Source: Asterella californica (lineage: Eukaryota > Streptophyta > Marchantiopsida > Marchantiales > Aytoniaceae). From it: 64,000 nt of DNA. The notes beneath the pieces are model-generated. The model saw nothing but the letters and a program-made list of their open reading frames with translations. It had not been told where the DNA came from and did no database searches. Made by a program: the position numbers and the translations under genes. Shown here one piece after another: positions 20,751 through 32,859 of this stretch (positions are counted from its first letter, which is position 1; every line of letters begins with the position of its first letter). The DNA lies in assembly GCA_036924285.1 (NCBI GenBank), contig JAYKYS010000004.1, positions 18,694,001 to 18,758,000 on the forward strand, given 5' to 3'.

Positions 20751-22150
20751 CTATATACATCGAGGACAAACCCACCGTTCAATATGAATGACACTGAGAG
20801 ATAGAGTCAAACAAGATATGTGCACACCTCTCGAACAACCATCACACACCAACATATGGTCTGTTCCACCAGCAGATCCACACAACATACACCTCAAGCT
20901 CGTGCATACAACCGCTAAGCTTGGGTCAACGATACCATCGATGTTTGGAAGATGACATGGTGCACAATTACGCACATGGTCCTTCCAACAACACCATCAT
21001 GACCCTCTAACATGAGTATTCCAGAAGGTAACACCTCACGCATTCGTAAAATAGTGCGTCATGCGATCACATCCAACATCATCGATGCAGTCTGTCATAG
21101 ATAGATATAATCACCAAGATGAAACATGCGAATCGATGGTCGATAACCTCCTCCTCGAATAGTCGCATATTGCAACATGTCTCGCTAGGTTCTCAAAAGC
21201 CATAGGTATAACTCTCTGAAATGTCTCGGCTCGTTGAGAATATGCTCTCATTCACATATCGGAGTCATCAAGGTTTAGCACCTCAGTAGAATCATGACGA
21301 TGGCTGAAGATAGATCTGGATCTCGACCATACAATATAAAATACGATGAGAAGGAAGCCAAAGACGCTTGTCGACTAAACTAATAGCCTATAGCCAACCA
21401 AGATAATTGCACATCCTAGTCTCCCAAGTGGCCCTTCTGCAAACCATACTTACGCAATCCTCTTTTCACCATCTGAACTATCTCTCCGTCAAACCATCCG
21501 TCTCAAGATGATCTCGAGATGTAGTCTGATGATCAATCAGCGCTTGATCACACTAGACATGAAACTCACCAAAAAACTCTATACCTTGGTCCGTCAGCAC
21601 TTCAGTTGGTACTCCAAAACGACTCAGCATTCCATCTAAGAATGCATACGCTGTCTCTTCACTCGCCTTGTCCGGTAATACCACCAACTCAATCCACTTG
21701 AAGAAGTGCTCCATCATCACCATCACATATCGGTGGTGACGTACAATCAACGGTAAGGGTCCTGTAAAATCTAAGCTCCAATGGTAATCCCATCTCATAA
21801 TCGATAAGAGGTGTAATTGTAGAGTATGAGCGTTAAATGATGCTCATATTCAATCACAAACCACACATCGTACGACAAACTACTACACATCGATGTGCAT
21901 ACCACGCCACCAATATTGTCCTTGGAGTAAGCTATGCGTACGCTTCATTCCAAAACGTCCCAACTCCTCATGAGCATGTCGTACTAATTGTGTCCTTTGG
22001 GATGGATGTGACACTATCTGTACTCTCTCATCGTCTTCCACTCGAAGTACATGTCATCTTTCTCGTCAAAATCTCTTCGCTCGTTGGAGGACGCGATCTC
22101 ACTCCTTGGCACTTATTGTGTCTATCATCACGCAAGTACGTAGATACTCC
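20751..22150 (-). pseudogene. Integrase with C-terminal PHD finger (copy A)
   Basis: Reading across frames, the N-terminal HHCC zinc region is visible (RHAHEELGRFGMKRTHSLLQ then RCVVCD), followed by the catalytic core with SLDFTGPLPLIVRHHRYVM, KWIELVVLPDKASEETAYAF and VLTDQG (the second Asp). The downstream core reads GLTER, GLQKGHLGD and FSRQASLASFS. After the SH3-like end (VREVLPSG) comes a PHD finger at 20975-20751: CMLCGS, ten residues, CDGC, HISC and CPRC, the C4HC3 pattern of a chromatin reader. The integrase joins cDNA to host DNA. The PHD would take the place that the chromodomain has in chromoviruses. In-frame stops and shifts show the copy is dead. Confidence 0.8.
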
Positions 22151-22151
22151 A

Positions 22152-22503
22152 TGTAGTGATGTAGGATTTCTCCTTTTGCCCATTTAGTATACAAGATATC
22201 GTTCCCACATAGGATTTGCACAAGTAACGCTGCTCTAAGTTCTAAGATCTGTTCAAACACACAAACACACGGGTTTTGCCTAGAAATCCCGTCTTCTCAC
22301 AAAACCACACCAAAACAACACGTCTTCCAGACACGCCAAATGGTGCTTTGGACCCAAACAAACAACTACCCATTACAATATCATACAACTATTCACAGAG
22401 AAGCTCGGGAAGACGATCTTCCTGCTTCCAGGTTGCTTCTTCCGGTCTTCTCGATACCGTCTTCCCGAAGCGATTCTCGTCTTCTGGGGGTTTAGCTCCA
22501 GGA
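22152..22503 (-). repeat. Right-end fragment of the GAAGAC-rich element inside copy A
   Basis: The minus strand matches the last 330-350 bp of the element at 34526-45748 (also 43230-43576): cccagaagacgagaatcgcttcgggaagacgg, then gcgttacttgtgcaaatcctctgtgggaacgatatcttgtatactaaatgggcaaaaggag, ending CACTACA at 22152. It lies exactly where the RT palm and RNase H of copy A should be, so insertion came with a deletion of about 1 kb. Only this terminal piece is present. Confidence 0.85.
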
Positions 22504-22504
22504 T

Positions 22505-22841
22505 GGTAGTCTCCACATATCCGTCTATTCGTGTAGTTGCCATACATATCATTCTTTGCTGGCATAATTGTGGCAGATGCATACTCTCCATGCGACATCT
22601 CCACCAACCCAACCTCCAACAAGTCTTGAGTCCTACTCTGGATCAAGGCTCTCTTCATGTCACTGTACCTATAAGAACGTCGAAAGATTGACAATCCATT
22701 AGCCAAGTCGATCCATATACCTGGTCCCTTCAAGGTACCCAAATCCTTCATACTAAAGGCAAAACAATTCCTGTAGCTCTTCAGGAATCTCTGAACTCTT
22801 CGTCTCTCCTCTCCTATAATCTTGGGTCCAATCTCTGACTC
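22505..22841 (-). pseudogene. Reverse transcriptase, N-terminal fragment (copy A)
   Basis: The frame 22751-22505 reads MKDLGTLKGPGIWIDLA, FRRSYRYSD, LLEVGLVEMSHGEYASAT and MPAKNDMYGNYTNRRICGDY. These are the finger motifs of Ty3/gypsy RT (FRRPYRYS..., L(L)EAGLIE.S.S.(Y/F)ASA, KKD...R.CGDYR). It breaks off at the CGDY motif, where the foreign fragment begins. The catalytic YIDD motif is absent in this copy but present in copy B. Confidence 0.85.
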
Positions 22842-23089
22842 TCAAATATCCTCTGTTACCATGTTAGAGGTAGAAGACGAAGTCGCTGACTGATATCTTG
22901 CAGCCTCTGAAGCAGTTTCTTTCTGCTCACCACCAACAACCTCCACCGCTACTATGCGAAAAACTTCTGAAGTTCTAGCTGCAAGCTCCACACTCTCTCC
23001 TACAACATCCCATGATGTCCAAGGATGACGAACTCCACGCGCCTCGCCCCCAGCCTTTATCTCCACCGACTCGATAGACAAGAGCTCAG

Positions 23090-30660: not shown

Positions 30661-31149
30661 ACAATGAGAGTCTTATCCAACGATGATAAGGTCACATGAC
30701 CAGTAGCAAGAACAACCCTCTGTTGACGATACCAAGGCTTCACTCCAAATCTACTACACCAACCGATCAACATACTGCCGCAACTCTCCACTCGAACTCC
30801 AGAGTGAAACATCCAAGGTAGATGATAAGGTATGTCACTCACCTCCTCAAAGACCAGAGTATTCTACGCATGGGCATTATCCTCTAACAACTCGTTCGGC
30901 CAAGTGATGATCGAACTGAACTCTGCAACAGATGTCATCATCTCGGGTGTAGGTTATGTTGTCCCAACTTTAGCATTGAACCGCACTGGTAAGCGACTCA
31001 CTCGCTCATCAAACTGCCAACCTTATCTATAAGATGTTGTCTCCGTTCAATAGTTGATCACGAACTCCATATGATATAACACAACATCTCCAACCCATAC
31101 GTCATAAGATTCTGTGGTTGTAATGATGACCTTGACCTTCACCATAGAG

Positions 31150-31452
31150 TCATTGGTGGGACGATCTGATCGAACTCTCATCGTCAGCATCTCGCATGTC
31201 ATGTGTAGAGTTGTATTCCTTGATCTCCTGGAATGGACATCTCTCCACTTCAGATTTCATCAGACCCAAACCAATGCACGCCGCCTTCCTCAACATCAAA
31301 GATTGGGTTTTAGAGTCTAACAAGATTTTTTGCGGTCGATACATCTTTTCTGAAAGTGTCACCAAACAAAAGATACCACTTCTGTTGTCCAACCAACACC
31401 ACACCTGGTGCCAAACCAACATGGTCAATTGTCGATCTAGCTGGTAACTCAT
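31150..31452 (-). pseudogene. Aspartic protease remnant (copy B)
   Basis: The frame shares NRSGIFCLVTLSEKMYRPQK, then ILLDSKTQSLMLRKAACIGL and KSEVERCPFQ with copy A. LLDS marks the expected catalytic Asp-Ser, but the following Gly-Ala has become Lys-Thr. The block is broken by stops on both sides. Confidence 0.6.
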
Positions 31453-32017
31453 CTAATCTGGCAATCGCTGCTTACCAGTACCACTGGTAGCCGTCATGAT
31501 CCTCGACTCCATAGATTAATCTATCGCTTCTCGTTGAACCACCTCAACACTAGAGGTAACTACATCCTTGCTCTCACTAAATGTGGCCACCAATTGGAAC
31601 AATGGAGCCAAGCTTACTTCCAATGCTCTCATATCCGTGGCTGAAAATAGAGGACTCGTAGAACTGATATAGTCGCCACCAACATCGAGTTTGACGTCGT
31701 ATCCATAAACATCGAGAGTTGACTCGCATCACCCTCACTCATGGATGTCGATACATCCAACTCCACTACATCATGGATAGTCCGTTTATGAATCATACAC
31801 GTGGTCCTCAACGCCTCCGATAACGTAAATGACTGAAGAAGCCTAATATGTCTACCAGTCTTCTTGTATTGTGGATCAACTCCACTGACCCACCTCGTGG
31901 CTCAGAGACACACACTAAATCTCGAATCACTGCCTCATATGTCTCAATCTGCATCACATCAGCCATGAAGTCGAAGTCAACTCCTTCTCCTTCATAAGAC
32001 GTGGAAGACTTTGTTCC

Positions 32018-32620
32018 TTAACCAGATCTCCGCTGAGCCATAGTCATACTAGCTATCTTTTGCTCTAACTGCTCAATCCGAGCAATCATATCCGCATCTG
32101 ACGTTGTAGCAAGCAGTGGACCGACTAATCCTCTCCCGGGTGTTGGACCTCTACCTCCACTTTGATCACCACGGTCTCCTTGAGCTCTTCCGTCTCGTCC
32201 ACGATCAGCCTTCCTTTGCCGTAGCTCGAGGTGGAGATCAAAACAATAGTCATTACTGTGACCTGATCGTCCGCAATACTCACACTGCTTAGGCACTGTT
32301 GATATGTCTCATTCTTCTCGTAATCACCTCTCCTCTGTGTGCAGTCCTTCTGCTAATGGAGATCATCACACATCCAGCAAGGCCCCATAGAAAGACGGCA
32401 TAGGTTTTTGTCCACTAGGTCCTCTAACACCTCCTTGCGATCGTGACTGTTCAACACGGTCCCTACCACCGTCATCACCATGCTGTTGCGTACTCTGTGA
32501 TCCTCGAGAAGAGATGGTCGTCCTATGTGATACCTCCCTGCTGAACCTAGTAATCACCACCCTCTTCTTCACCCTGTTGAGCACCAATCCGCTCAGCCAA
32601 ATCAAGACAACAGCCAACAC
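32018..32620 (-). pseudogene. Gag C-terminal part with CCHC zinc knuckle (copy B)
   Basis: Contains CEYCGRSGHSNDYC (C-x2-C-x4-H-x4-C), a Gly/Arg/Asp-rich linker and ARIEQLEQKIASMTMAQRR, all matching copy A. The upstream frame (32620-32366) has the Arg/Ser/Gly-rich segment RDRVEQSRSQGGVRGPSGQK. The N-terminal gag seen in copy A is missing: the LTR fragment follows almost at once at 32621, so a deletion removed the region between. Confidence 0.75.
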
Positions 32621-32859
32621 TAAAGTTGAGTCAAATCCACTCTATGCATCAGAGACGCAGATTGAGCTCACCAAGACTATCCATCATAGATAGGAGCTTG
32701 AAGACTCAACTCGAAGAACTAAAACCTACAAGCCTTACTTATGAAGTAAACCTCTAGTGGGGCTAGTCCAAGAACTCGCCCTAATGACACTAACAACCCT
32801 ACCGAGACTAACCACTACGCACTCGGTCAACCTAGCCGAGGTACTAAACTGACGTGACA
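32621..32859 (-). repeat. LTR fragment of copy B
   Basis: Matches the outer part of the LTR at 27728-28195 (taaagttgagtcaaatccac to actaaactgacgtgaca). The inner half is missing. The outer TG-type end lies at 32859. Confidence 0.65.

What the first reader, a model, noticed from the sequence alone, without database searches (positions are those of the whole stretch)
20751..32859. Ty3/gypsy family carrying its own DNMT3/DRM-like cytosine methyltransferase between protease and RT
Both copies hold methyltransferase motifs I, IV, VI, VIII and X in canonical order at the same place in the polyprotein (copy A 23090-24100, also with motif IX; copy B 29690-30660). Copy A keeps the catalytic PCQ, copy B keeps ENV, so the family ancestor plausibly encoded an active enzyme. 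A transposon that methylates DNA could hide itself or act on host chromatin. DNMT capture by retrotransposons is established for Klebsormidium and Symbiodinium. Whether this is the same lineage or another capture cannot be told here.
Basis: partly seen in the sequence, partly recalled or inferred. Interest (0 to 1): 0.88.

Follow-up and report, generated by a model that had tools for sequence, protein, structure and literature searches.

The report
Plant retrotransposon carrying DNA methyltransferase
This is a family of jumping genes in a plant genome that carries its own DNA-methylating enzyme, apparently made together with the particle proteins ahead of a leaky stop codon, with relatives in mosses and liverworts.

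Summary
Confirmed, on the minus strand. Both window copies are decayed members of a Ty3/Gypsy family whose first ORF is gag-protease-DNMT3-type methyltransferase. One in-frame UAG follows, then RT-RNase H-integrase-PHD finger. The window's genome (516.7 Mb, host unnamed) holds 821 exact-flank DNMT/RT junction sites; 800 read TAG. Of 40 fetched copies, 38 have an alignable junction, all UAG-CAG-UCA; a distant relative (L058, DNMT 49% identical) reads UAG-CAA-UCA. Both fit the plant leaky-stop motif UAG-CAR-YYA (recalled). In 16 of 40 fetched copies the DNMT frame holds the SAM, PCQ and ENV motifs; dN/dS is about 0.18 between subfamilies, 0.31 within. The predicted fold resembles DNMT3A/B. The ends are split direct repeats (A ... 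B-A-B) with 4-bp target duplications, like the DIRS-type repeats reported for KnitGypsy-Dnmt3 of Klebsormidium. Protein relatives occur in Marchantia, Calypogeia, Riccia and Sphagnum; chlorophytes carry a form with the DNMT between RNase H and integrase. One review says such transposons are absent from land plants. Most likely function, inferred only: the DNMT is packaged and methylates the new cDNA. A new variant of a known kind.

The parts
27964..28195 (-). copy A, 5' terminal repeat A1 (begins TGTCACGTCAG)
   Evidence: 88% to repeat A of another copy; boundary
26756..27910 (-). copy A, untranslated leader
   Evidence: 89-90% to leaders of L051/L052
25197..26754 (-). copy A, gag region (broken)
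   Evidence: tblastn P0003 1-517
24430..25134 (-). copy A, protease region (broken)
   Evidence: tblastn P0003 521-757
23117..24118 (-). copy A, DNMT3-type methyltransferase (broken: frameshifts, stops; PCQ kept, ENV now KNV)
   Evidence: Pfam PF00145 1.5e-6; tblastn P0020; motifs
22887..22895 (-). copy A, place of the UAG-CAG-UCA junction (reads TAT CAGTCA)
22506..22907 (-). copy A, reverse transcriptase N-terminal fragment (most of RT and RNase H missing)
   Evidence: tblastn P0004; gap in blastn
20993..22152 (-). copy A, integrase (H2C2, rve and C-terminal part)
20754..20978 (-). copy A, PHD finger region at the integrase C-terminus
   Evidence: PF00628 1.9e-8; tblastn P0022
18955..20636 (.). 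later insert that splits copy A's 3' untranslated region
   Evidence: blastn of L049 stops at 20637 and resumes at 18954
18786..18892 (-). copy A, repeat B1
   Evidence: 89% to B
18522..18785 (-). copy A, repeat A2 (diverged)
   Evidence: lies between B1 and B2; 84% over 112 nt
18412..18517 (-). copy A, repeat B2, 3' terminus
   Evidence: 89% to B
32667..32859 (-). copy B, 5' terminal repeat A1
   Evidence: 79% to A
31794..32632 (-). copy B, gag C-terminal part
31198..31656 (-). copy B, protease region
29715..30689 (-). copy B, DNMT3-type methyltransferase (broken: ENV kept, PCQ lost)
29439..29447 (-). copy B, UAG-CAG-UCA junction, kept
28709..29384 (-). copy B, reverse transcriptase
   Evidence: PF00078 1.7e-13
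28199..28713 (-). copy B, RNase H, cut off where copy A begins
   Evidence: PF17919 2.1e-18

Best explanation
A Ty3/Gypsy-type retrotransposon family (about 9.9 kb in the one copy measured) that carries a DNMT3-type cytosine methyltransferase as part of its gag-side polyprotein. SHOWN: ORF1 is gag-protease-DNMT; one in-frame UAG followed by CAR-YYA separates it from ORF2, RT-RNase H-integrase-PHD; the ends are split direct repeats (A1 ... B1-A2-B2) with TGTC...GACA termini and 4-bp target duplications; the DNMT is kept by selection. INFERRED: most ribosomes stop at the UAG and make Gag-PR-DNMT; a few read through and make Gag-PR-DNMT-RT-RH-IN-PHD. So the methyltransferase is made and packaged at Gag level, unlike a Pol enzyme. 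Inside or just outside the particle it methylates the new double-stranded cDNA, so that the copy enters the genome already marked as silent chromatin, while the PHD finger tethers the integrase to nucleosomes. My odds: identity 0.97, programmed readthrough 0.85, an active enzyme in intact copies 0.8, own cDNA as main substrate 0.45. The confidence below is for the chain up to 'active gag-side DNMT used during retrotransposition'.
For: Domains in order. Junction: TAG-CAGTCA in 38 of 40 fetched copies; of the other two, L017 diverges after the DNMT and L028 has an indel. Genome-wide 800 of 821 exact-flank sites are TAG. L058 has TAG-CAATCA with ORF2 open in the same frame. Other TAGs in the 40 loci are followed by CARYYA in 6 of 5818 cases (less the 38 junctions). 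ORF1 proteins of Marchantia (P0003, P0005, and P0006, a partial record) and of an unnamed metagenome (P0007) end at the homologous place. Selection: DNMT dN/dS 0.18 against 12 far copies, 0.31 against 27 near copies; RT 0.06/0.18, gag 0.20/0.33. DNMT3 identity: best PDB profile hit DNMT3A 5.5e-20; model pLDDT 80, all 50 listed Foldseek rows (of 1253 matches) are DNMT3 entries. Split repeats and TSDs GAGA and TAAC in the 2 copies for which both ends were read; A1=A2 over 294 nt and B1=B2 over 107 nt in one copy, so that insertion is recent. The PHD's best PDB relatives include MLL3, CHD4, DPF2, KDM5B and PHF21A (60 of 98 shown).
Against: No transcript, protein, readthrough or methylation was measured. 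In the 2018 yeast test the KnitGypsy-Dnmt3 domain gave no methylation, which its authors call inconclusive (PMC5890265 section 10 read). In Haematococcus relatives P0023/P0024 the slot is kept without the PCQ and ENV motifs, so a structural role is possible. Counts are not independent: all copies are compared with one reference; a codon-model run failed. Exact-flank junction counts select young copies. Old copies show C-to-T excess in CG, CHG and CHH, which fits host methylation and does not need the element's own enzyme. Pfam sees no CCHC or protease in the family's own ORF1, only in relatives.
Confidence: 0.62

Rival explanations
1. The DNMT acts on host chromatin, not on the element's own cDNA: it methylates target sites or neighbouring genes and so steers or dampens host silencing.
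For: The ORF1 product may be free of RT and abundant; the element also carries a PHD reader.
Against: Nuclear entry was not tested; the host already has DNMT3-like and DRM-like genes (by my reading of frames).
Confidence: 0.2
2. The domain is kept for nucleic-acid binding or folding (gag or RT partner, RNA or RNA-DNA hybrid binding), catalysis being secondary.
For: Haematococcus relatives keep the slot without PCQ and ENV; DNMT dN/dS (0.18) is higher than RT's 0.06 and near gag's 0.20.
Against: PCQ, ENV and H-R-x-R are invariant in all 11 sequences of alignment A1, ten of the DNMT-before-RT kind and one (P0022) of the other; in the 44-row alignment A2 these columns are mostly 90% or more, H fully invariant.
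Confidence: 0.2
3. The UAG is not programmed: it is an ordinary end of ORF1, and ORF2 is reached by another route (splicing, internal initiation, frameshift).
For: No readthrough was measured; Marchantia protein records P0004, P0008 and P0017 run across the place with residues missing, presumably by predicted introns; the window family's ORF2 has a Met at residue 11.
Against: ORF2 lies in the same frame directly after the UAG in two lineages, UAG-CAR-YYA in both, and L058's ORF2 has no Met in its first 60 residues.
Confidence: 0.13
4. The domain was captured separately by the DNMT-before-RT (bryophyte-type) and the RNase H-DNMT-integrase (chlorophyte-type) elements from related DNMT3 genes.
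For: It sits in two different places. In the DNMT tree P0069 and P0215, which also have the DNMT before RT, stay outside the bryophyte-type clade, so one simple relocation is not shown.
Against: All 57 retroelement DNMTs stand together against host DNMT3, host DRM and human DNMT3A (support 100); both forms share integrase-PHD. Only three cellular rows, long branches flagged, quick method.
Confidence: 0.25

Closest known systems
KnitGypsy-Dnmt3 of Klebsormidium nitens (de Mendoza et al. 2018, PMC5890265; abstract and sections 9, 10, 11 read)
   Same: Gypsy domain set, intronless non-rearranged DNMT3 domain, DIRS-like repeat structure, purifying selection on the DNMT
   Different: Reported as inside the Pol ORF; its main text has no PHD, readthrough, Marchantia or liverwort (term counts; 'bryophyte' once, for host genes). 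Here the DNMT is on the gag side of a UAG-CAR-YYA, with a PHD at the integrase end and 821 junction sites. Sequence kinship not tested.
SymbioDIRS-Dnmt3 and SymbioLINE-Dnmt of Symbiodinium (same paper)
   Same: Retrotransposon-borne DNMT
   Different: DIRS and LINE elements, not Gypsy; the paper treats them as independent captures
RT-RH-DNMT-IN-PHD elements (P0022 and others from metagenomes; P0199 Scenedesmus, P0208 Monoraphidium; P0201 Cymbomonas, where only DNMT-IN was detected; found here)
   Same: DNMT clade, integrase-PHD
   Different: DNMT lies between RNase H and integrase in one ORF
Chromoviruses (Ty3/Gypsy with a chromodomain at the integrase end; recalled)
   Same: Histone-reader module at the integrase C-terminus
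   Different: PHD finger instead of a chromodomain; extra DNMT; split direct repeats
UAG-CAR-YYA readthrough of TMV and of the plant retroelement SIRE1 (recalled, nothing read)
   Same: Leaky UAG context
   Different: There it leads to a replicase or env-like extension; here it separates Gag-PR-DNMT from RT

Membership tests
Ty3/Gypsy retrotransposon | RT-RNase H before a DDE integrase in one pol frame | tested here: met
Ty3/Gypsy retrotransposon | TG...CA ends and short target duplication | tested here: met
   TGTC...GACA; TSD GAGA and TAAC, 2 copies
Ty3/Gypsy retrotransposon | two equal long terminal repeats | tested here: not met
   5' end holds A only; 3' end holds B-A-B
DIRS/PAT/Ngaro elements | split direct repeats A1...B1-A2-B2 | tested here: met
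DIRS/PAT/Ngaro elements | tyrosine recombinase instead of integrase | tested here: not met
   H2C2 and rve integrase found; no tyrosine recombinase in the Pfam scans
DNMT3 methyltransferases | motifs I-IV-VI-VIII-IX-X in unpermuted order with PCQ and ENV | tested here: met
DNMT3 methyltransferases | closest solved relatives are DNMT3 | tested here: met
DNMT3 methyltransferases | methylates cytosine in DNA | not testable with these tools
DRM methyltransferases | permuted motif order | tested here: not met
   order is unpermuted; the DRM-like host frame L002 is permuted
KnitGypsy-Dnmt3 lineage | Gypsy domains with DIRS-like repeats and DNMT3 | tested here: met
   against the figure legend
KnitGypsy-Dnmt3 lineage | DNMT within the Pol polyprotein ORF | tested here: inconclusive
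   here upstream of RT and of a UAG in the same frame; the exact place in K. nitens is not given in the text seen
KnitGypsy-Dnmt3 lineage | groups with K. nitens sequences in a tree | not tested
   no K. nitens record named in the 120 listed of 205 hits or in the 77
Type I (TMV-like) stop-codon readthrough | UAG followed by CAR-YYA | tested here: met
   CAGUCA in 38 of 40 copies (2 not alignable or with indel); CAAUCA in L058; motif itself recalled
Type I (TMV-like) stop-codon readthrough | measured extension product | not testable with these tools
   -
Chromovirus | chromodomain at integrase C-terminus | tested here: not met
   PHD finger there

The most novel reading that the evidence does not exclude
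One Ty3-like lineage with split direct repeats captured a DNMT3 once, before the chlorophyte and streptophyte lines parted, and has carried a DNA-methylation writer and a histone reader (integrase-PHD) ever since. In the line leading to mosses and liverworts the writer stands on the gag side of a leaky UAG (which of the two positions is older is open), so that it is made at Gag level and marks every new cDNA before integration: a self-silencing, low-harm parasite.
Probability: 0.3. Interest if true: 0.87.

Novelty: new variant of a known kind. Interest (0 to 1): 0.7.

Why it matters
[quoted passage not shown] Here protein hits of the family are in four named bryophyte genera (some of them fragments), and the window's genome has 821 junction sites, at least one with identical terminal repeats. 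It makes an open question, what a transposon gains from a de novo DNMT, testable in Marchantia, a genetic model. The gag-side position behind a leaky-type stop gives a concrete prediction about dose and packaging.

Tried and rejected
DRM-like origin: rejected on motif order. Chance motif match: rejected (Pfam 1.5e-6 on one broken frame; tblastn E 1e-121 and lower). Host gene fragment in two copies only: rejected. Plus-strand reading: only two weak unrelated Pfam hits. RNA structure as readthrough stimulator: z = -1.9 and -3.0 for two junctions; weak, not used. Codon-model estimate with IQ-TREE: failed on a stop in L037; simple counts were used. Viral contigs: 2 weak loci, L056 and L057, which do not look like this element and were not used. 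Where copy B continues beyond copy A: not found in the window. 3' end of the L036 copy: the stretch fetched (L054) held no A or B. Number of B/A end junctions in the genome: not answered. Literature: 10 searches; the listings shown (20 of 28 papers, 15 of 102) held no title on DNMT-bearing Gypsy elements in bryophytes or on their PHD or UAG. Subscription papers and preprints were not searchable. Of PMC5890265 I read the abstract, sections 9, 10 and 11 and found passages; of PMC12344493, PMC5784723, PMC5009743, PMC6453930, PMC8616336 and PMC6338049 passages only. PMC12344493 says DNMT3s sit in LTR Copia and DIRS elements of streptophytes and dinoflagellates. PMC5009743 has no CARYYA, so that motif rests on memory.
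Full report
What is there. The two copies lie on the minus strand. Stop-to-X frames scanned with Pfam give, in copy A, C5 DNA methylase (1.5e-6), integrase zinc domain (2.7e-11), rve (2e-9) and a PHD finger (1.9e-8); in copy B, RT (1.7e-13) and RNase H (2.1e-18). A protein search with copy A's DNMT frame gave 23 hits, 14 of them annotated Marchantia polymorpha proteins, 12 of these with a precomputed PF00145, at 41-66% identity to the decayed query. 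tblastn with these maps gag, protease region, DNMT and RT in that order in both copies. Gag and protease rest on homology and on motifs seen by eye: Pfam found neither in the family's own ORF1, but found a zinc knuckle and aspartyl protease in relative P0210 (1.6e-4, 8.8e-5) and a weak protease in L058 (7.8e-4).

The family in its own genome. The window is C313:18694001-18758000 of an unnamed 516.7 Mb genome. The PF00145 profile gave 1250 first-look candidates, of which 123 were scored and matched; by my count 28 of the 123 lie in open frames of at least 1000 aa. A few are host genes: by my reading of the frames, with no family search, L001 is an unpermuted DNMT3 and L002 a permuted DRM. In 16 of the 40, one frame holds motif I, PCQ and motif X together, and all 16 show YILENV. 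ORF2 of L043 holds RT, RNase H and integrase, and the downstream pieces of two copies end in a PHD finger followed by a stop (Pfam PHD 1.8e-11 for one).

A leaky-type stop. ORF1 ends at TAG, and the RT frame continues directly in the same frame. Of 40 fetched copies the junction aligns in 38, and all 38 read TAG-CAG-TCA; the two others are L017, which diverges after the DNMT, and L028, with an indel. Window copy B reads TAG-CAG-TCA, copy A TAT-CAG-TCA. Genome-wide 821 sites match the flanks exactly with any codon there, and 800 of them have TAG. This shows that TAG is the family state; exact flanks select young copies, so it is not by itself proof of selection. Independent support is L058, a 9.2 kb contig binned in a cyanobacterial MAG (DNMT 49% identical; ORF1 as a whole 34%): its ORF1 ends TAG-CAA-TCA, and a 1047-aa frame with RT, RNase H, integrase and PHD follows in the same frame. 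Its RT/integrase is 65% and its integrase end with PHD 72% identical to the window family. UAG-CAR-YYA is, from memory, the tobacco-mosaic type of leaky stop. Other TAGs in the 40 loci carry CARYYA in 6 of 5818 cases (44 of 5856 less the 38 junctions). ORF1 proteins P0003, P0005 and P0006 (Marchantia; P0006 is a partial record) and P0007 (unnamed metagenome) end at the homologous place. Among relatives without RNase H before the DNMT and with a complete DNMT C-terminus, 79 of 91 proteins end 0-195 aa after the DNMT and 12 run on into RT, RNase H or integrase. The length limits of the searches and contig ends bias that count, and five of the 12 are DNMT-IN or DNMT-IN-PHD fragments that may belong to the other architecture.

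The ends. In one copy the 5' end carries a 294-nt repeat A and the 3' end carries B(107)-A(294)-B(107), with A1=A2 and B1=B2 at 100%; its span is about 9.9 kb by the coordinates. A second copy (L050) shows the same 3' layout. The three 5' pieces that reach past A (L051, L052, L053) show no B; L055 holds only the first 169 nt of A. Window copy A shows A at 28195 and B-A-B at 18892-18412. The fetch meant for the 3' end of the L036 copy (L054) held no A or B. Termini are TGTC...GACA, with 4-bp duplications GAGA and TAAC. So these are split direct repeats, as in DIRS/PAT elements, on an integrase-bearing element. The 2018 paper says in a figure legend that the K. nitens element has the repeat structure of a DIRS element with Gypsy domains. 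L058 keeps the B/A junction CGACAGCTGTCACG, and its ends overlap by 60 nt, as in a circular assembly.

Selection. Codon counts of 39 copies against L043: for the 12 far copies dN/dS is gag 0.20, PR 0.10, DNMT 0.18, RT 0.06, RNase H 0.06, IN 0.12; for the 27 near copies gag 0.33, PR 0.27, DNMT 0.31, RT 0.18, RNase H 0.21, IN 0.13. All are against one reference, so the pairs are not independent. Thirteen DNMT frames compared all against all pool at 0.32 (one of them, L037, holds a stop near its start, that codon was skipped, and the codon-model run failed on it). Window copies: DNMT dN/dS 0.43 (A) and 0.60 (B), as expected for copies that have long been decaying.

What kind of methyltransferase. 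The profile of 11 sequences matches 57 PDB sequences: DNMT3A best at 5.5e-20, then DNMT3C and 3B, 4onj 'DNA methyltransferase' at 2.4e-10 (recalled as a tobacco DRM), DRM2 at 1.6e-8, HaeIII 2.3e-8, HhaI 7e-7. The AlphaFold model of one copy's domain (44-row alignment, mean pLDDT 80.4, pTM 0.81) matches DNMT3 entries in all 50 listed Foldseek rows (target-normalised TM mostly 0.74-0.83 for catalytic-domain chains, query-normalised about 0.5). In a 60-row tree the 57 retroelement DNMTs stand together against host DNMT3, host DRM and human DNMT3A (support 100). A clade of 30 rows (97) holds the window family, all 7 rows that I labelled bryophyte (one of them, P0007, is an unnamed metagenome protein) and 18 metagenome rows. 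The RNase H-DNMT-integrase rows form a clade (86) that also takes in P0090, a fragment I had put with the other kind. P0069 and P0215, with the DNMT before RT, and P0125 stay outside both (quick method, long branches flagged). The RT tree of 68 rows separates 5 DNMT-before-RT rows (three of the window family, P0014, P0215) from 63 others on one branch (96). So the two trees agree for the main groups, but not on P0215.

Spread. Named hits: Marchantia polymorpha, M. paleacea, Calypogeia fissa, Riccia sorocarpa, Sphagnum troendelagicum and S. tenellum, besides a bacterial MAG label (120 of 205 hits listed). The other architecture, RT-RH-DNMT-IN-PHD, has 54 complete examples among the proteins in hand, named ones from Scenedesmus and Monoraphidium; Cymbomonas P0201 shows DNMT-IN only (77 hits). 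Haematococcus P0023/P0024 keep the slot but not PCQ or ENV.

Function. Not shown. Gag-side placement predicts abundant, packaged enzyme; methylation of the element's own cDNA is my leading reading and was proposed for the Symbiodinium DIRS elements from a Pol position (section 11 read). The window copies show C-to-T excess in CG (0.12-0.20), CHG (0.17-0.26) and CHH (0.10-0.16) against A-to-G 0.04-0.05, so old copies look heavily methylated; L043 is not their ancestor, so directions are approximate.

Novelty. The kind is known; the gag-side position, the UAG-CAR-YYA, the PHD, the spread over bryophytes and the chlorophyte form were not in the texts seen. One 2019 paper states absence from land plants, such as tracheophytes.

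Noticed in passing
P0023, P0024 (Haematococcus lacustris): Gypsy elements keep a DNMT-like stretch between RNase H and integrase in which PCQ and ENV are lost: probably a dead methyltransferase retained.
   Followed up: partly
P0022, P0215 C-termini, after the PHD: A further stretch with DPWAG and APPL/SSPW-like motifs, which may be a second (adenine or N4) methyltransferase; Pfam gives no hit there.
   Followed up: partly
window 17012-20038: Large inverted repeat (six arm pairs, 78-91% complementary) around the 3' end of copy A; one arm lies in the insert that splits copy A.
   Followed up: partly
L058:1-9218: Eukaryotic-type retrotransposon binned in a cyanobacterial MAG; contig ends overlap by 60 nt, so it was assembled as a circle.
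   Followed up: partly
window 28199 / 28195: Copy A starts inside the RNase H region of copy B, so it seems to have inserted into copy B; the rest of copy B is not found in the window.
   Followed up: partly
window copies A and B against L043: C-to-T changes are in excess in CG, CHG and CHH, highest in CHG.
   Followed up: partly
L001, L002: The host seems to have an unpermuted DNMT3 and a DRM, so it kept both de novo methyltransferase types (read by eye).
   Followed up: no
window 35900-45800: GC-richer stretch with positive GC skew and no Pfam hit in its plus frames; minus frames not scanned.
   Followed up: no
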